A stretch of DNA of 64,000 bases from Clostridia bacterium (lineage in GTDB: Bacteria; Bacillota; Clostridia; Christensenellales; CAG-138), in contig JAFQCL010000014.1 in NCBI GenBank assembly GCA_017416425.1, positions 1-64,000 on the forward strand, in the 5' to 3' direction. The notes below the pieces were generated by a model. It was given only the letters and a program-made list of their open reading frames with translations. It did not search any database and was not told where the DNA came from. A program made the position numbers and the translations under genes. Shown piece by piece: positions 52,964-60,073 of this stretch (position 1 is its first letter; every line of letters starts with the position of its first letter).

Positions 52964-53243
52964 TTTACTACTCCTTATTTCGTGTCTTCATTTATATTGT
53001 AGGCCTATTTCCATAAAACATTAAAGCCATCATATTAAGACTTATACCCTTAAACGTTGAAACATCCCAAAGCTTAAGGATACTATAAAAATTTTCCGAG
53101 CATCTCAGTATAGCTAGCCAAACGCCATCCGCATTGAGTATTGTAACACTGAATACACCATCGTTCAAGTATAGTTTAATGTATGTTGTAATGTTCTTCC
53201 GTTAATGATACAATTAGAAAAAACACAAAGGCAGGTAAATCAT
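52964..53243. other. Intergenic region between nfnA and the gene at 53244
   Basis: This 280-base divergent stretch holds a weak candidate for the nfnA promoter (TTAATG and TACAAT, 17 bases apart on the minus strand near 52998-53026) and the promoter for the plus-strand gene. No other feature was seen. Confidence 0.5.
53186..53214 (+). promoter_or_regulatory. Promoter of the gene at 53244
   Basis: TTGTAA and TACAAT are 17 bases apart. RNA would start near 53221, which excludes the upstream ATG at 53205 as the translation start. Confidence 0.6.
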
Positions 53244-53948
53244 ATGCTATATATCCGCTGCGTTTGGGAGCACAACGCACATGATACCCTTTTGTATGCG
53301 GAAAATATTATCGGAGCCTTTACAAGGGGTACTTCTTTAGATGAAGCTTTAAATAAAATGCCGCGGGAGATCTGCTCCTATTTAAAATGGATCGGATATG
53401 GCGCTCCAGACGATCTAAAGCCGGTCATCGTTCAGGAAAAGGAATCACAGCTTAAAATCAGCGATGCCGATAGCGATGTATTATTTGATAGTGAACGAGA
53501 AGTTTTGACTTGGTGTGAATACAGCTCATTAAAGCAGCTTGCGCTTAAATCGGCCGCCGATTTTCATAGACTTTATGAGTCCATTCCCGATATCAAAAAA
53601 AGCTGTCTTAAAGAGCGTTCCACCTTTTACGGCAGCATGCCTCTCACCGCAGAGGAAATGTATTTTCATACAAGGAATGTAAACAGCTACTACTTTGATG
53701 AGATCGGGGTAACTGCGGATAATGGAGGCTCAATTTTAGACTGTAGGATCAGAGGTTTTAAGGCGCTGGAGCGTAAGCCCGATTATTTGAGCAATACCGT
53801 CTACTTCGGCAGCTATAATGAGGAATGGTCTTTACGAAAAGTGCTTCGCCGCTTTGTATGGCATGATAGGATACACGCAAAAGCTATGTGGCGTATGGCT
53901 GAAAAAACCTTTGGTCATGGCAGCATTCCTAATATATTTTGTTTTTGA
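53244..53948 (+). CDS. Unknown two-part protein: HicB-like start, DinB-like end
   Basis: This 234-residue protein is not one I can name. Residues 1-50 (MLYIRCVWEHN, then TLLYAENIIGAFTRGTSLDEALNKMP) resemble the small HicB fold used by antitoxins and other regulators. The C-terminal 100 residues are helical and include TRNVNSYYF and VWHDRIHAKAMWRMA, recalling the metal-binding histidines of DinB-like proteins. I infer no function. The start is the ATG at 53244, since the predicted RNA begins near 53221; the ribosome-binding site (GCAGG) is weak. Confidence 0.65.
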   Translation: MLYIRCVWEHNAHDTLLYAENIIGAFTRGTSLDEALNKMPREICSYLKWIGYGAPDDLKPVIVQEKESQLKISDADSDVLFDSEREVLTWCEYSSLKQLALKSAADFHRLYESIPDIKKSCLKERSTFYGSMPLTAEEMYFHTRNVNSYYFDEIGVTADNGGSILDCRIRGFKALERKPDYLSNTVYFGSYNEEWSLRKVLRRFVWHDRIHAKAMWRMAEKTFGHGSIPNIFCF

Positions 53949-53967
53949 ACATATATCTATAATAAAT

Positions 53968-53995
53968 ATTAGCCGAATGAAATCACTCGGCTAAT
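53968..53995. terminator. Hairpin between the gene at 53244 and flavodoxin
   Basis: ATTAGCCGA and TCGGCTAAT form a perfect 9-base stem around a 10-base loop, between two convergent genes. The T-run is better on the minus strand (ATTTATTAT), so it most likely ends the flavodoxin transcript. Confidence 0.65.
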
Positions 53996-54017
53996 ACATT
54001 ACATAATCAATTTATAG

Positions 54018-54431
54018 TTATGAATTTGTTAAAGCTTTTCCAAGCTGTACGCACATTTCCTGTGCATCCGTATCAGGCGCTTCATTGCATATGAAACTAT
54101 CAGTAACCATAACCGCCCCTTTAGCTCTACACATATCTTCCCACGTACGCATCCACTCGCCATCACCCCAACCATATGAGCCAAAAAGCACTATCTTTTT
54201 ACCTGAAAGCTTATGTGCACATTCGTTAAACATTGGCTCAAATTCGCTTTCCTCAAGCTGCTCGGCTCCCATCGAAGGGCATCCAAATGCTATAGCGTCA
54301 AACTCATCCATCATTTTAGCATTAAACTCACTTGCTGTAAAGATAGATGCCTGTGCTCCCTCAGCTACTTTTTGAGCCATCAGCTCGGTATTACCTGTCC
54401 CGCTCCAATAAACTACAGCCGTTTTTGTCAT
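54018..54431 (-). CDS. Flavodoxin
   Basis: Flavodoxins are small FMN proteins that replace ferredoxin in electron transfer when iron is short. The 137 residues hold the FMN phosphate loop SGTGNT at 10-15 and the isoalloxazine-side loops AFGCPSMG near 50 and FGSYGWGDGEW near 89. Length and motifs fit a short-chain flavodoxin. It is the last gene of a three-gene operon behind two likely DtxR-type operators, which suits iron-starvation control. Confidence 0.93.
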   Translation of the reverse strand: MTKTAVVYWSGTGNTELMAQKVAEGAQASIFTASEFNAKMMDEFDAIAFGCPSMGAEQLEESEFEPMFNECAHKLSGKKIVLFGSYGWGDGEWMRTWEDMCRAKGAVMVTDSFICNEAPDTDAQEMCVQLGKALTNS

Positions 54432-54466
54432 AAATTACCAATCCTCCTTGATCATATATGTATCTA

Positions 54467-55018
54467 TTAGGCGCTTACGGTAAGCTGAAGTACACTTCTA
54501 CCTTGTTCCCAGAGGCGCTTGTATATATCCTTACATTTATTAAATCTGGCGAATGTTTTCACAGCTTCACATTTATCACCATATACTTTCCAACAGCCTA
54601 TATATTTGCAGTTACGTCCGCCACTATTTATAAAACCCATGACATCATGCAGGGGATAACCAAGAAAAACGCCTATCTCATGCGGAAAATTATCGTCTTC
54701 AATTATACGCGAAGAAAGTTTTTGTAAAGCCGATTCAAGATCAAGTCCTTTATAGCCTCGCTCGTCCAAAAACAGCTTAATCGCGGATGAGGTCAAATCT
54801 TGGATAAGGCTGCTTCGCCTGTAAACATATATCAGCGCTTTATTATCACGCTTTCTCATTACAAAAAACTCTATTCCCTTTGGAGCAAAAGACTCATTAT
54901 AGTATAAAATCATTCTTTCAAAATCCATATCGCACGAAAGCTCTATTGTAAATAAACTTGCGGTCTTCAATGACGCAAGCGTAGGCGCACAATGCTCAAT
55001 AAGATACCTCTCCATCAT
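54467..55018 (-). CDS. DUF3793 protein
   Basis: This 183-residue protein belongs to the DUF3793 family. Its function is unknown. Clostridial members are often next to flavodoxin genes. It has LIEHCAPTLASLKTASLF (residues 5-22) and PHEIGVFLGYPLHDVMGFI near 111-129, and a final CKDIYKRLWEQG. No signal peptide or membrane helix is seen. It starts five bases after the DUF2325 stop, so the two are coupled. Its operon suggests a role in iron or redox homeostasis. Confidence 0.88.
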   Translation of the reverse strand: MMERYLIEHCAPTLASLKTASLFTIELSCDMDFERMILYYNESFAPKGIEFFVMRKRDNKALIYVYRRSSLIQDLTSSAIKLFLDERGYKGLDLESALQKLSSRIIEDDNFPHEIGVFLGYPLHDVMGFINSGGRNCKYIGCWKVYGDKCEAVKTFARFNKCKDIYKRLWEQGRSVLQLTVSA

Positions 55019-55023
55019 TTAAA

Positions 55024-55311
55024 TTAAACCTCCATACACAAATTGCTCAAAGCCCCACTTAATGCGGCAGCGCTGCTGGTATGAACGCGCAAAATCGGAA
55101 TATTGTTACGTTTAGCCTCCTGCTCGGCACTTATAACCATTTTGTGCGAGACAGTTCCTGTAAAAAGTATAAGCATATCTGGGCATCCCATTTTACGCTT
55201 GAGAGAGCCGTTTTCCTTTGTAAAAACCTTTGCCCTGCATCCATAACTTTTACATATATCCAAGTATTTGCATTCCATTCGTTCGTTACCGCCAACTATT
55301 ACAATACTCAT
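55024..55311 (-). CDS. DUF2325 small protein
   Basis: The 95-residue protein starts MSIVIVGGNERMECKYLDIC and matches the DUF2325 pattern; the VIVGG loop and a later CPDMLILFTGTVSHKM look like a small Rossmann-type fold. Its role is unknown. The ATG at 55309-55311 has a GGAGAAG site. It is the first gene of the flavodoxin operon and follows a long leader with two operator-like palindromes. Confidence 0.85.
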   Translation of the reverse strand: MSIVIVGGNERMECKYLDICKSYGCRAKVFTKENGSLKRKMGCPDMLILFTGTVSHKMVISAEQEAKRNNIPILRVHTSSAAALSGALSNLCMEV

Positions 55312-55411
55312 TCTTCTCCAACCTCGCACAAAATATACAAACTATCGGATAAAGTGTAGGTAAATGGCTTTTACTCCACCCACTTACATCAAAATCGAAA
55401 GTTCAAATTCA

Positions 55412-55427
55412 GTTAGACATTTCTAAC
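55412..55427. promoter_or_regulatory. DtxR-like operator, proximal copy
   Basis: GTTAGA, CATT, TCTAAC is a perfect 6-base inverted repeat and matches the distal copy at 55467-55482 in arms and spacing. The half-site resembles the DtxR/IdeR iron-repressor consensus TTAGGTTAG. Confidence 0.6.
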
Positions 55428-55444
55428 CGAATGGTGTAAAAAGC

Positions 55445-55460
55445 GCGGCTATTAAGCCGC
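55445..55460 (-). terminator. Hairpin between the two operators, possible attenuator
   Basis: GCGGCT, a 4-base loop, AGCCGC forms a perfect 6-base stem, followed on the minus strand by GCTTTTT. In the leader of the flavodoxin operon this could end transcription early. Confidence 0.5.
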
Positions 55461-55466
55461 CGTTTA

Positions 55467-55482
55467 GTTAGAGCCCTCTAAC
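55467..55482. promoter_or_regulatory. DtxR-like operator, distal copy at the predicted RNA start
   Basis: GTTAGA, GCCC, TCTAAC is the second perfect copy of the palindrome, 55 bases from the first. It lies at the predicted transcription start of the operon, where a bound repressor would block the promoter. Confidence 0.65.
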
Positions 55483-55490
55483 CAAACAAA

Positions 55491-55519
55491 GTTTAACACA
55501 TAGCTATGTCCTTTGTCAA
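55491..55519 (-). promoter_or_regulatory. Promoter of the DUF2325-DUF3793-flavodoxin operon
   Basis: On the minus strand, a perfect TTGACA (55514-55519) and TTAAAC (55491-55496) are 17 bases apart. The spacer contains the palindrome ACATAGCTATGT. Confidence 0.65.
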
Positions 55520-55601: not shown

Positions 55602-55625
55602 TTGTGACAAATTCAAATGTCACAA
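55602..55625. promoter_or_regulatory. Inverted repeat upstream of the activase promoter
   Basis: TTGTGACA, eight bases, TGTCACAA is a perfect 8-base inverted repeat ending 9 bases before the -35 box, a place typical of an activator site. The wide spacing rules out the Rex and CRP patterns. Confidence 0.5.
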
Positions 55626-55662: not shown

Positions 55663-55843
55663 TGCAGAAAAAAAGCGGCACATACGTGACACTAGTTGAT
55701 GTAATAAGGTGTGCCTATACGTTTAAGCCCTGAATCATCGTTTTGGGCTTTGCTACAAAAAATTTTTATCCGGTTCACAATAAAGCCAGCTCCTGACTAT
55801 ATTGTTTTTAGAACCGAATAACAGTATATCCGAGGTTATTAAA

Positions 55844-58800
55844 ATGAATGAATACAGAGCCGGCATAGACGTTGGTTCTACAACCGTTAAGCTGGTGATT
55901 TTAGACCAGCATAATAAAATATTATACAGCGACTATCGGCGACATTACGCCCATACACGGGATACACTTGCCGCGCTTTTAAATGACGCCATAGCAACAG
56001 TAGGTGATGTTTCTACACATGTACACATTACCGGCTCAGGCTCTATAAGCCTTTCTAAGGCTCTTGATATTACCTTTGTTCAGGAGGTAGTTGCTGTTGC
56101 TTCAGCGCTTAAGTCAATTGCCCCAGATGCTGATGTCGCAATCGAACTTGGCGGTGAGGACGCAAAGATCATTTACTTTACTGGCGGGCTTGAAGAGCGC
56201 ATGAATGGAGTTTGCGCCGGCGGCACTGGATCTTTTATAGACCAGATGGCGGCTCTTCTTAAAACCGATGCTATGGGTCTTAATGCAGAAGCTGTATCCT
56301 ACGAACAGATATATCCCATTGCAGCAAGATGCGGTGTATTTGCGAAAACCGACATTCAGCCCCTCATAAACGAGGGCGCTGCAAGACCCGACCTTGCTGC
56401 CTCTATTTTTCAGGCGGTCGTAAACCAGACCATTTCAGGACTTGCCTGTGGTAAGCCCATACGAGGCTGTGTTGCATTTTTAGGAGGTCCTCTGCATTTT
56501 TTGACCGAACTTAGAAGATCGTTCATACGCACGCTGAAGCTTACGCCGGATATGGTAGTTGATCCTGAAAATTCGCACCTCTTTGCGGCCATAGGCGCCG
56601 CCATGCAAGAAGACGAAAGCAAGCCTGTAAATCTCAGCGTTCTCCATGAACAGCTCAAGCTGTGTACCCAAATAGGTTTTGAAATAAAGCGCCTTCCCCC
56701 CCTTTTTGAGAATCAGACGGAATATGACGTTTTTTTAAAGCGCCATGAAAAAGCTGTTATCAAGCGTGGCGAGCTTTCACAATATGCGGGAAACTGCTTC
56801 CTCGGCATAGATGCGGGCTCTACCACCACCAAAATCGCGCTTATCGGTGAATCTGGCGAACTGCTTTACTCATTTTACTCAAGCAATGAGGGCAGACCCA
56901 TTAAAACCGCTATCAGCGCAATTTCAGAACTGAAAACACTTCTGCCTGATACCGCAAAAATAGCTCGTTCATGTTCTACCGGCTATGGTGAGGCGCTTTT
57001 TAAGTCCGCGTTTTGTCTTGACGAAAGCGAAGTCGAAACTATAGCTCATTGTATGGCTGCCGAGTTCTTTGATGATGATGTTGATTGCGTACTCGACATA
57101 GGCGGGCAGGACATGAAGTGCATAAAACTTAAAAACCATTCCGTTGACGATATACTTCTAAATGAGGCCTGTTCATCGGGATGCGGCTCTTTCATAGAAA
57201 ATTTTGCATCGTCACTTGGCTATACCGCCGAGGAATTCGCTGATAAGGCTCTTTTTGCGAAAAACCCGATCGACCTTGGCACACGCTGCACCGTATTTAT
57301 GAATTCAAACGTGAAGCAGGCGCAAAAAGAGGGCGCGCCTGTTTCAGACATATCCGCCGGCCTTGCGTATTCCGTAATTAAAAACGCGCTGTACAAAGTG
57401 ATAAAGCTTGCGGATGTGAAGGAACTTGGCGCACATGTAGTCGTGCAGGGCGGCACGTTTTATAATAAAGCCGTTTTAAGAGCCTTTGAGAAAATATCGG
57501 GCGCCGAAGTCGTTTGCCCCGATATAGCCGGAATCATGGGTGCTTTTGGCGCGGCTCTTATTGCAAAGGCGCATTACATTGGTCAGCCGACTACGATGCT
57601 CCCCCTATCCGAAATTGAGCAGCTCTCATATGTTACATCCACAGCACGATGCAAGGGTTGTTCTAACAAATGTGTGCTCACTATCAATACATTCCCAAAT
57701 AGCAGAAAGCATATAACAGGCAATCGCTGTGAAAAGGGATTAGGCAATACACATAATCATCACGAAGCGCCTAATATGTATGCATATAAAAAGTTGCGTA
57801 TGTTCAATTATCAACCCCTTGATGAAGCTGAGGCAAAAAGAGGTACGATCGGCATACCGCGCGTACTTAATATATATGAGAACTATCCGTTCTGGGCTGT
57901 ATTCTTCCATGAGCTTGGCTTTCGCGTGGTTCTTTCCCCCTTTTCAGATAGACGCCTCTATGAGCTGGGAATGGAGTCCATACCCTCTGAATCCGAGTGT
58001 TATCCGGCAAAGCTCGCCCACGGGCATGTTCAGTGGCTTATAGATAGAGGAATTAAAACCATATTTCACCCATGTGTATTCTATGAGCGGCAGGAAACCG
58101 AAGGCGCACAAAATCACTACAATTGCCCCATAGTCGTATCATACCCTGAAAACCTAAAAAACAATGTTGAAGCTGTGACCGAAGGCAATATACGCTATAT
58201 ACGCCCATTTATCGCTTTTACAGATGAAAAAACAGCTGGTAAGCGCCTGGTGGAGCTTTGCGCCAAGGAGTGGGATATACCTGCCCATGAGGTAAAAAAA
58301 GCAGTACACAAGGCGTGGCTCGAGCAATCGCGGGCAAAGAAGGATATTTTGGCCGAAGGAACCCGCATGATGGCCGAAATGGAAAAGAATCATGCGCGTG
58401 GAATAGTTCTCGCAGGGCGTCCCTATCATGTGGACCCCGAGATAAACCATGGCATACCCGAAATGATAGCATCTTATGGACTATACGTATTTTCAGAGGA
58501 TAGTCTTCCAATAGATTTTAAGCCCAGTCGTCCGATAAGAGCTAACGATCAATGGGTATATCACTCAAGACTATATACGGCTGCAGAATTTGTTTTAAGG
58601 CGCAATGATCTTGAGCTTATACAGCTTAACTCCTTCGGTTGCGGGCTTGATGCCGTAACTACGGATCAGGTATCCGAGATACTTCAAAGCGCGAATAAGA
58701 TTCATACCGTACTTAAAATAGACGAAGTCAATAATCTTGGAGCCGCCAGAATAAGGATACGCAGTCTGCTTGCGGCAATAAACAGACGTGATAAATCCGG

Positions 58801-60073
58801 CACAAACCTCGCTGTACCTTTTTCGGGATATAATCGAACCGAATATACGGAAAACATGTTTAGGGACAAATATACCATACTTGCTCCTCAGATGAGTCCC
58901 ATCCACTTCGATATATTAGAGCCGATATTTCTAAAGTACGGCTTTAATGTGGAAATATTGAATAACGATAACCGAAAAGCAATAGATACGGGACTTAAAT
59001 TCGTAAATAACGATGCCTGCTTCCCCTCTGTAACGGTAGTTGGGCAGATAATGGAAGCTGTACTATCCGGGCGATATGATACAAGCCGTCTTGCGATCAT
59101 AATGACGCAAACGGGCGGCTGCTGTAGAGCCAGCAACTATGTGGGCTTCATAAGAAAGGCGCTTGATAGAGTCAATCTTTCCCATATTCCCGTAATATCT
59201 CTGAATGTAAACGGCATGGAAAAAAATAAAGGTTTTAATCCTCCCCTTTCCATGCTCTATACAGCTATGAAGGCAATCGTATATGGCGATCTGTTGATGA
59301 AATGCCTTTATCGTGTGCGCCCCTATGAGCTTATACCAGGTTCTGCGAATGAGCTACATAAAAAATGGCGTAATATATGCATAGATTCACTTATAAATAA
59401 AAAAAGCAGGTATTCCTATCGCAGGGTATGCAAGGGCATCGTAAAGGCTTTTGATGAGCTGCCTGTAAACGAAAATCTCAAAAAACCAAGAGTAGGCATT
59501 GTTGGCGAGATACTTGTAAAGTATATGCCTCTTGCAAATAATCATCTTGTGGATCTGCTAGAACATGAGGGCGCGGAGGCTGTAGTACCTGATCTGATCG
59601 ATTTTTTAAATTACTGTATGTATAATGCAGACTATAAACATAAGTTCCTTGGGGGAAAATGGACATCTGCCGCCATATCCAAAATCGGTATCGCCGCGAT
59701 TCAAGCCATAAGGAAGCCCGCTCTTAACGCGATTTCAAAAAGCAAGCGTTTTATGGCGCCTCCGCCTATCAAGGAGATCGCAAAGCTTTCCAAGCCATTT
59801 TTATCGCTTGGAAATCAATATGGCGAAGGTTGGTTTTTAACAGGTGAAATGGTTGAGCTAATCACCTCAGGCACGCCAAACATAGTATGTATTCAGCCCT
59901 TTGCTTGTCTTCCCAATCACGTTGTCGGTAAGGGTGTTATAAAGGTTCTGAAAAAAGCCTATCCCCTTGCTAACATCGTAGCGGTCGACTATGACCCCGG
60001 CGCCAGCGAAGTAAATCAGCTTAACCGCATAAAGCTGATGCTCTCGGGGGCAAAGACAAGCTGCAATTTATAA
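55844..60073 (+). CDS. Giant 2-hydroxyacyl-CoA dehydratase activase-related protein
   Basis: Activases such as HgdC use ATP and a 4Fe-4S cluster to push an electron into a dehydratase. This 1,409-residue protein fuses two activase (BadF/BadG-type) ASKHA domains, with GIDVGSTTVKL near 7 and GIDAGSTTTKI near 318, a DUF2229 domain (about 650-900), and a HgdB-like C-terminal part. The second activase has CSSGCGSF, whose cysteines suit a cluster, and the first has GVCAGGTGSF. Members are common in gut clostridia but of unknown substrate. The ATG at 55844 has a GAGG site 8 bases upstream. Confidence 0.88.
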   Translation: MNEYRAGIDVGSTTVKLVILDQHNKILYSDYRRHYAHTRDTLAALLNDAIATVGDVSTHVHITGSGSISLSKALDITFVQEVVAVASALKSIAPDADVAIELGGEDAKIIYFTGGLEERMNGVCAGGTGSFIDQMAALLKTDAMGLNAEAVSYEQIYPIAARCGVFAKTDIQPLINEGAARPDLAASIFQAVVNQTISGLACGKPIRGCVAFLGGPLHFLTELRRSFIRTLKLTPDMVVDPENSHLFAAIGAAMQEDESKPVNLSVLHEQLKLCTQIGFEIKRLPPLFENQTEYDVFLKRHEKAVIKRGELSQYAGNCFLGIDAGSTTTKIALIGESGELLYSFYSSNEGRPIKTAISAISELKTLLPDTAKIARSCSTGYGEALFKSAFCLDESEVETIAHCMAAEFFDDDVDCVLDIGGQDMKCIKLKNHSVDDILLNEACSSGCGSFIENFASSLGYTAEEFADKALFAKNPIDLGTRCTVFMNSNVKQAQKEGAPVSDISAGLAYSVIKNALYKVIKLADVKELGAHVVVQGGTFYNKAVLRAFEKISGAEVVCPDIAGIMGAFGAALIAKAHYIGQPTTMLPLSEIEQLSYVTSTARCKGCSNKCVLTINTFPNSRKHITGNRCEKGLGNTHNHHEAPNMYAYKKLRMFNYQPLDEAEAKRGTIGIPRVLNIYENYPFWAVFFHELGFRVVLSPFSDRRLYELGMESIPSESECYPAKLAHGHVQWLIDRGIKTIFHPCVFYERQETEGAQNHYNCPIVVSYPENLKNNVEAVTEGNIRYIRPFIAFTDEKTAGKRLVELCAKEWDIPAHEVKKAVHKAWLEQSRAKKDILAEGTRMMAEMEKNHARGIVLAGRPYHVDPEINHGIPEMIASYGLYVFSEDSLPIDFKPSRPIRANDQWVYHSRLYTAAEFVLRRNDLELIQLNSFGCGLDAVTTDQVSEILQSANKIHTVLKIDEVNNLGAARIRIRSLLAAINRRDKSGTNLAVPFSGYNRTEYTENMFRDKYTILAPQMSPIHFDILEPIFLKYGFNVEILNNDNRKAIDTGLKFVNNDACFPSVTVVGQIMEAVLSGRYDTSRLAIIMTQTGGCCRASNYVGFIRKALDRVNLSHIPVISLNVNGMEKNKGFNPPLSMLYTAMKAIVYGDLLMKCLYRVRPYELIPGSANELHKKWRNICIDSLINKKSRYSYRRVCKGIVKAFDELPVNENLKKPRVGIVGEILVKYMPLANNHLVDLLEHEGAEAVVPDLIDFLNYCMYNADYKHKFLGGKWTSAAISKIGIAAIQAIRKPALNAISKSKRFMAPPPIKEIAKLSKPFLSLGNQYGEGWFLTGEMVELITSGTPNIVCIQPFACLPNHVVGKGVIKVLKKAYPLANIVAVDYDPGASEVNQLNRIKLMLSGAKTSCNL

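What the first reader, a model, noticed from the sequence alone, without database searches (positions are those of the whole stretch)
54018..55519. Iron-starvation-type operon with two DtxR-like operators around a hairpin
Two identical palindromes (GTTAGA-N4-TCTAAC) flank a terminator-like hairpin in the leader of DUF2325-DUF3793-flavodoxin. The distal one lies at the predicted RNA start, next to a perfect TTGACA. DtxR/IdeR-type repressors bind TTAGGTTAG half-sites, close to these. Flavodoxin replaces ferredoxin when iron is low. DUF2325 and DUF3793 may therefore act in iron or redox adaptation. The hairpin between the operators suggests a second layer of control, such as early termination.
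Basis: partly seen in the sequence, partly recalled or inferred. Interest (0 to 1): 0.65.

Follow-up and report, generated by a model that had tools for sequence, protein, structure and literature searches.

The report
Iron-repressor operators flanking an early terminator
In this Clostridia genome an iron-saving operon (two proteins of unknown function plus flavodoxin) carries two binding sites for a DtxR-type metal repressor on either side of a tiny transcription stop signal, an arrangement found across Clostridia with fixed spacing, which suggests that the repressor not only blocks the promoter but also triggers the stop signal.

Summary
On the minus strand a sigma-70 promoter is followed by operator 1 (55482-55467), a terminator-like hairpin with a T5 tract, operator 2 (55427-55412) and DUF2325-DUF3793-flavodoxin.

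The iron reading holds. TTAG-N6-CTAA occurs only 7 times in the 1.63-Mb genome: two here, two between a dtxR/mntR-like gene and feoA-feoA-feoB, one before a feoAB fusion. The geometry is that of the single-dimer IdeR site (TTAGGNNNNCCTAA). 75 of 80 DUF3793 loci from named Clostridia carry the operator; in relatives it also precedes FecCD, siderophore-binding and NifH-like genes.

A T-rich window ends 7-11 nt before it in 37/52 pairs (shuffles: mean 8, maximum 17) and in 28/31 other leaders, including feoA. Whole-genome control: 86 operators with T5 on the upstream side, 12 with it on the opposite side. Leaders with one promoter-proximal operator lack it.

Best reading: operator 1 blocks initiation; metal-loaded repressor on operator 2 stalls RNA polymerase on the U-tract and favours termination, resembling Pol I roadblock terminators. 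Operators are well supported; coupled termination is inferred and untested. DUF3793 has no clear PDB fold match.

The parts
55514..55519 (-). -35 element TTGACA
   Evidence: sequence
55490..55495 (-). -10 element TAAACT, 18-nt spacer; the predicted start lies about at 55484, at the edge of operator 1
   Evidence: in relatives the -10 sits at -13 to -8 from operator 1
55467..55482 (-). operator 1, GTTAGAGGGCTCTAAC; palindrome extends to 26 bp (55462-55487) with one G/T mismatch pair
55445..55460 (-). terminator-like hairpin GCGGCT-TAAT-AGCCGC
55438..55442 (-). T5 tract (U-tract), ending 10 nt before operator 2
55412..55427 (-). operator 2, GTTAGAAATGTCTAAC; palindrome extends to 26 bp (55407-55432) with one G/T mismatch pair
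55024..55311 (-). DUF2325 protein (PF10087), small four-strand Rossmann-like fold in the model
54467..55018 (-). DUF3793 protein (PF12672), confidently modelled, no clear PDB fold match
54018..54431 (-). short-chain flavodoxin
53970..53996 (.). hairpin TTAGCCGA...TCGGCTAA just after the flavodoxin stop codon, probable end-of-operon terminator shared with the convergent gene
   Evidence: direct reading of sequence, not tested

Best explanation
The operon DUF2325-DUF3793-flavodoxin belongs to an iron (Feo) regulon under a short DtxR/MntR-type metal repressor. When iron is plentiful a metal-loaded dimer on operator 1, which covers the transcription start, blocks initiation. A second dimer on operator 2 lies 10 bp past the U-tract of a weak intrinsic terminator. 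A polymerase that escapes operator 1 collides with this dimer when its active site is on the U-tract, is held there, and is released by the hairpin. When iron is scarce both operators are empty and polymerase reads through, so flavodoxin and the two DUF proteins are made. The presence of the operators, and their sharing with feo genes, is shown by sequence. The identity of the repressor and of iron as signal is inferred from gene neighbourhood and metal-site residues. Roadblock-coupled termination is inferred from conserved spacing.
For: The core TTAG-N6-CTAA occurs 7 times in the genome, and 5 of those are at iron-type promoters. GTTAGM-N4-KCTAAC occurs in 80/103 family genomes, far above the reversed-pattern counts, mostly at feoA/feoB/dtxR. 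75/80 DUF3793 loci from named Clostridia carry the core. A single IdeR dimer binds TTAGGNNNNCCTAA (PMC8464063). The regulator next to feoA is in 89/103 genomes; genomes with it have the operator more often (76/89 vs 4/14, p=3e-5, confounded by completeness), and Cys/Glu/His at the DtxR C102/E105/H106 positions are invariant in 42/42. T-tract anchored to operator 2: 28/31 and 37/52, with shuffle maxima of 11 and 17. Identity is 0.54 in the T-tract and about 0.28 around it. T5 on the upstream side at 86 operators, on the opposite side at 12. None of 11 op1-only leaders has T5 downstream. Hairpin of dG <= -5 abutting the T-tract in 36/65. Eukaryotic precedent: Pol I stopped 15 bp before Reb1 and released by a hairpin (PMC12366685).
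Against: No expression, binding or 3'-end data. The hairpin is less conserved than the T-tract: about half of T-tract leaders lack a strong one, and the 34-bp feoA leaders have only the operator-1 palindrome as a possible stem. The T-tract could assist DNA bending or a pause without termination. A 10-bp gap is closer than the 15-bp stall distance reported for Reb1, so RNA polymerase may stop slightly before the ideal release point. 11 of 80 named loci have two operators but no T-tract by the rule used. Operator 1 shows some left-right pairing excess (63 vs 47 expected), which an RNA role could also give, though shared ancestry inflates this.
Confidence: 0.58

Rival explanations
1. Plain dual-operator repression: two DtxR-type dimers cooperate (perhaps by looping) to block initiation, and the hairpin is an ordinary leaky terminator or mRNA 5' structure without functional link to operator 2.
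For: Operator 1 alone suffices at the promoter in 11 named leaders. Operators are separated by a wide range (30-96 bp), compatible with flexible looping.
Against: T-tract position is fixed relative to operator 2 and not to operator 1, is orientation-specific and is absent when operator 2 is absent.
Confidence: 0.22
2. The T-tract is part of an extended DNA operator (shape readout or bending) rather than a termination element.
For: IdeR recognises DNA shape (PMC8464063); many leaders have a T-tract without a strong hairpin.
Against: The operator is palindromic, yet no matching A-tract is found downstream of operator 2 (A 0.25-0.44, flat), and opposite-side tracts are 7 times rarer genome-wide. 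Operator 1 has a -10 element there, not a T-tract.
Confidence: 0.12
3. RNA-level control (riboswitch or antitermination) in which the palindromes act as RNA stem-loops.
For: The leader folds better than shuffles (z = -3.8); operator 1 shows an excess of pairing at its variable position.
Against: No Rfam match up to E = 1. Many operators carry C/A mismatches at the inner pair. The same sequence occurs inside promoter spacers and upstream of promoters where it is not transcribed. No alternative pairing with the terminator was seen.
Confidence: 0.05
4. The regulon responds to manganese rather than iron (MntR-like regulator).
For: The regulator is closest to MntR in length and sequence.
Against: Regulated genes are FeoA/FeoB, FecCD, siderophore-binding and flavodoxin; the MntR Glu99 position is an invariant Cys as in DtxR/IdeR.
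Confidence: 0.08

Closest known systems
DtxR/IdeR operators
   Same: TTAG...CTAA half-sites with the N6 spacing used by one dimer (PMC8464063); iron-uptake targets
   Different: single-dimer 16-bp palindromes instead of the 19-bp two-dimer box; half-site position 5 is mostly C/A/T; spaced tandem copies
MntR (B. subtilis, E. coli)
   Same: short regulator without SH3 domain; best PDB and NCBIfam matches
   Different: Cys instead of Glu99 in the metal site; located with feo genes; below NCBIfam equivalog cut-offs
Bacterial repressor roadblocks (LacI, PurR, CcpA, CodY; PMC10310618)
   Same: DNA-bound repressor downstream of the start site stops elongating polymerase
   Different: here a hairpin and U-tract are placed at fixed distance before the roadblock, so release would not need to rely on Mfd or Rho
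RNA polymerase I terminators (Reb1/Nsi1; PMC12366685)
   Same: hairpin, T-rich tract, then roadblock protein site at fixed distance
   Different: bacterial polymerase, at the 5' end of a regulated operon, with a metal-dependent roadblock; analogy only

Membership tests
DtxR/IdeR-type operator | TTAG-N6-CTAA single-dimer geometry | tested here: met
DtxR/IdeR-type operator | full 19-bp TTAGGTTAGSCTAACCTAA box | tested here: not met
   operators are 16-18 bp palindromes, PWM
DtxR/IdeR-type operator | bound by a DtxR-family protein | not testable with these tools
   needs EMSA or footprinting
Iron (Feo) regulon | same operator at iron-uptake genes of the same genome | tested here: met
Iron (Feo) regulon | expression responds to iron | not testable with these tools
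   no transcript data
DtxR-family iron repressor (protein at G000 C22:21376-21753) | wHTH plus Cys/Glu/His metal-site residues as in DtxR | tested here: met
   42/42 Cys, Glu, His
MntR | Glu at position 99 and score above NCBIfam cut-off | tested here: not met
   Cys instead; 100.5 bits vs cut-off 153
Intrinsic terminator | G+C-rich stem followed by U-tract | tested here: met
   for the window; met in about half of relatives with a T-tract
Roadblock-coupled terminator | T-tract at fixed distance upstream of a protein-binding site | tested here: met
Roadblock-coupled terminator | release depends on the bound protein | not testable with these tools
   needs in-vitro transcription
Known riboswitch or leader RNA | match to an Rfam family | tested here: not met

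The most novel reading that the evidence does not exclude
Clostridia use a composite control element in which a metal-dependent repressor gates an intrinsic terminator: the repressor bound 8-11 bp past a U-tract stalls RNA polymerase on it and triggers release, giving iron-controlled premature termination on top of promoter repression. In short feoA leaders the operator palindrome itself may serve as the terminator stem. DUF2325 and DUF3793 would be conserved, uncharacterised parts of the iron-sparing response of Clostridia.
Probability: 0.48. Interest if true: 0.82.

Novelty: new variant of a known kind. Interest (0 to 1): 0.64.

Why it matters
It assigns two uncharacterised families (DUF2325 in this context, DUF3793) to a predicted iron-starvation regulon that recurs across Clostridia, including gut genera such as Blautia, Anaerostipes and Gemmiger. 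It proposes a simple testable design in bacteria, a repressor-gated terminator, whose parts resemble RNA polymerase I terminators. If true, promoter repression and attenuation, usually treated as separate, are carried out by one repressor on two copies of one operator.

Tried and rejected
Exact palindrome with up to 1 mismatch finds only these two sites, which at first looked like a refutation; relaxing to the TTAG-N6-CTAA core resolved it. The two remaining core sites in the genome, inside an M3-peptidase-like gene (C18:120863) and beside a phage-type repressor gene (C32:789), look like chance. Riboswitch reading: no Rfam match. RNA-stem reading of the operators: mismatched arms and non-transcribed copies. 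Helical phasing of the two operators: spacings cluster at 34 and spread over 50-70 bp, with no clean period. Literature on DUF3793: no relevant paper in the held library. Function from fold: the DUF3793 model (pLDDT 93) has no convincing PDB match (best E 0.008, TM 0.26); DUF2325 gives only a generic Rossmann-like match.

Full report
What is there. Reading the minus strand, the leader is TTGACA-(18)-TAAACT, then GTTAGAGGGCTCTAAC (operator 1), a GCGGCT-TAAT-AGCCGC hairpin, TTTTT, ten bases, GTTAGAAATGTCTAAC (operator 2), and about 100 bases to the ATG of DUF2325, followed by DUF3793 and flavodoxin.

More than chance. The exact palindrome with up to one mismatch occurs nowhere else in the genome. 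The core TTAG-N6-CTAA occurs seven times. Two sites are here, two lie between a divergent dtxR-like gene and feoA-feoA-feoB, and one lies about 50 bases before a feoAB fusion gene. The other two are in an M3-peptidase-like gene and beside a phage-type repressor gene. Because the reversed control pattern has nine core matches in the same genome, it is the location at iron genes, not the count, that carries the weight.

Comparative evidence for an iron regulon. In 30 DUF3793 loci of the same family the motif is RGTTAGC-N4-GCTAACY directly downstream of a sigma-70 -10 element. The stricter motif is in 80 of 103 family genomes, far above the reversed control, and most fetched loci are feoA, feoB, dtxR-like or feoAB. 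Further targets in relatives are siderophore-binding proteins, a FecCD permease, NifH-like proteins and a YgbA protein. Of 80 DUF3793 loci from named Clostridia, 75 carry the core upstream; flavodoxin lies nearby in 61 loci.

The regulator. The protein divergent from feoA is 126 aa, best matched by MntR in the PDB but below the NCBIfam MntR cut-offs. At the MntR Glu99 position, which is Cys102 in DtxR (residue numbering from general knowledge), it has Cys. This Cys, the following Glu and His, and the upstream Glu and His are invariant in 42 of 42 relatives. The regulator is found in 89 of 103 family genomes; operators co-occur with it (76/89 vs 4/14, p = 3e-5, partly an effect of incomplete assemblies). 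The paper PMC8464063 shows that one IdeR dimer recognises TTAGGNNNNCCTAA, the same geometry as here.

The terminator and operator 2. When tandem operators are aligned on operator 2, a T-rich tract appears at -10 to -17. It is present 7-11 nt before operator 2 in 28 of 31 leaders of DUF3793, DUF2325 and feoA in the order (shuffle mean 4.5, maximum 11), and in 37 of 52 pairs from named Clostridia (mean 8.1, maximum 17). Alignment on operator 1 shows no such peak. Mean pairwise identity is 0.54 in the tract and 0.25-0.31 on either side, so it is not simply inherited sequence. The mirror position downstream of operator 2 has no A-tract. Across 238 genomes of the order, T5 precedes an operator at this distance at 86 distinct operators in 57 genomes; A5 at the same place, meaning the tract on the other side, does so at 12 in 11 genomes (distinct operators counted by hand from the listed matches). 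Leaders with only the promoter-proximal operator have no T5 tract downstream (0 of 11). A stable hairpin abuts the tract in 36 of 65 leaders, mostly the wide-spaced ones. In the 34-bp leaders the operator-1 palindrome is the only candidate stem; it scored as such in two DUF3793-associated leaders and one feoA leader.

Mechanism. Shown: promoter-like sequence, operators, terminator-like hairpin, and conserved orientation-specific spacing. Inferred: metal-loaded repressor on operator 2 holds polymerase at the U-tract and favours release. The closest documented case is RNA polymerase I, which is stopped 15 bp before Reb1/Nsi1 and released by an upstream hairpin with help from the T-rich tract (PMC12366685). 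Bacterial repressors are known roadblocks, with Mfd as a main release factor (PMC10310618). Two further literature searches found no bacterial description of a repressor placed to drive an intrinsic terminator, but the held library is partial.

The proteins. DUF3793 has an invariant FPHE-G-FLxYPxxD core and a confident AlphaFold model (pLDDT 93) without a convincing PDB neighbour. DUF2325 is a small Rossmann-like protein. A DUF2325 protein in Campylobacter, Cj1384, is reported as PerR-regulated, next to katA, and strongly induced by light stress (PMC9426514). A role in iron sparing or redox adaptation is therefore plausible but unproven.

Confidence. DtxR-type operators of an iron regulon: about 0.9. 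Dual operators with coupled termination: about 0.5-0.6. No experiment was available.

Noticed in passing
window 55602-55625: A second type of palindrome, TTGTGACA-N8-TGTCACAA, lies in the same intergenic region on the side of the large divergent BadF/DUF2229 activase gene; it may be an operator of another regulator.
   Followed up: no
window 55802-60073: 1423-aa 2-hydroxyacyl-CoA dehydratase activase-type protein (BcrAD_BadFG, DUF2229) divergent from the operon.
   Followed up: no
window 53205-53948: 247-aa ORF convergent with flavodoxin, no Pfam match.
   Followed up: no
L054, L056, L068 (sites near 1501): At some feoA promoters an operator fills the spacer between TTGACA and TATAAT, in addition to downstream copies.
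   Followed up: no
L096 1501-1577: A YgbA (nitrous-oxide-stimulated) gene has operators on both sides of its promoter, so the motif may also serve nitrosative or haem-related genes.
   Followed up: no
L099, L101, L102: NifH/frxC-like genes with tandem operators and hairpin in one family of the order, suggesting iron control of a nitrogenase-like system (Pfam scan done for L101 only; L099 and L102 share its N-terminal sequence).
   Followed up: partly
window 55462-55487 and 55407-55432: In this genome both operators extend to 26-bp palindromes with different outer arms (GTTT/AAAC and ATTC/GAAT), which is not general in relatives.
   Followed up: partly
window 55312-55411: The 100-nt stretch between operator 2 and the DUF2325 start can form a further hairpin; relatives usually have a shorter distance.
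   Followed up: no
G000 C31: A third feoB and a second, more MntR-like DtxR-family gene lie on this contig without an exact operator core, so the genome may have separate iron and manganese regulators.
   Followed up: partly
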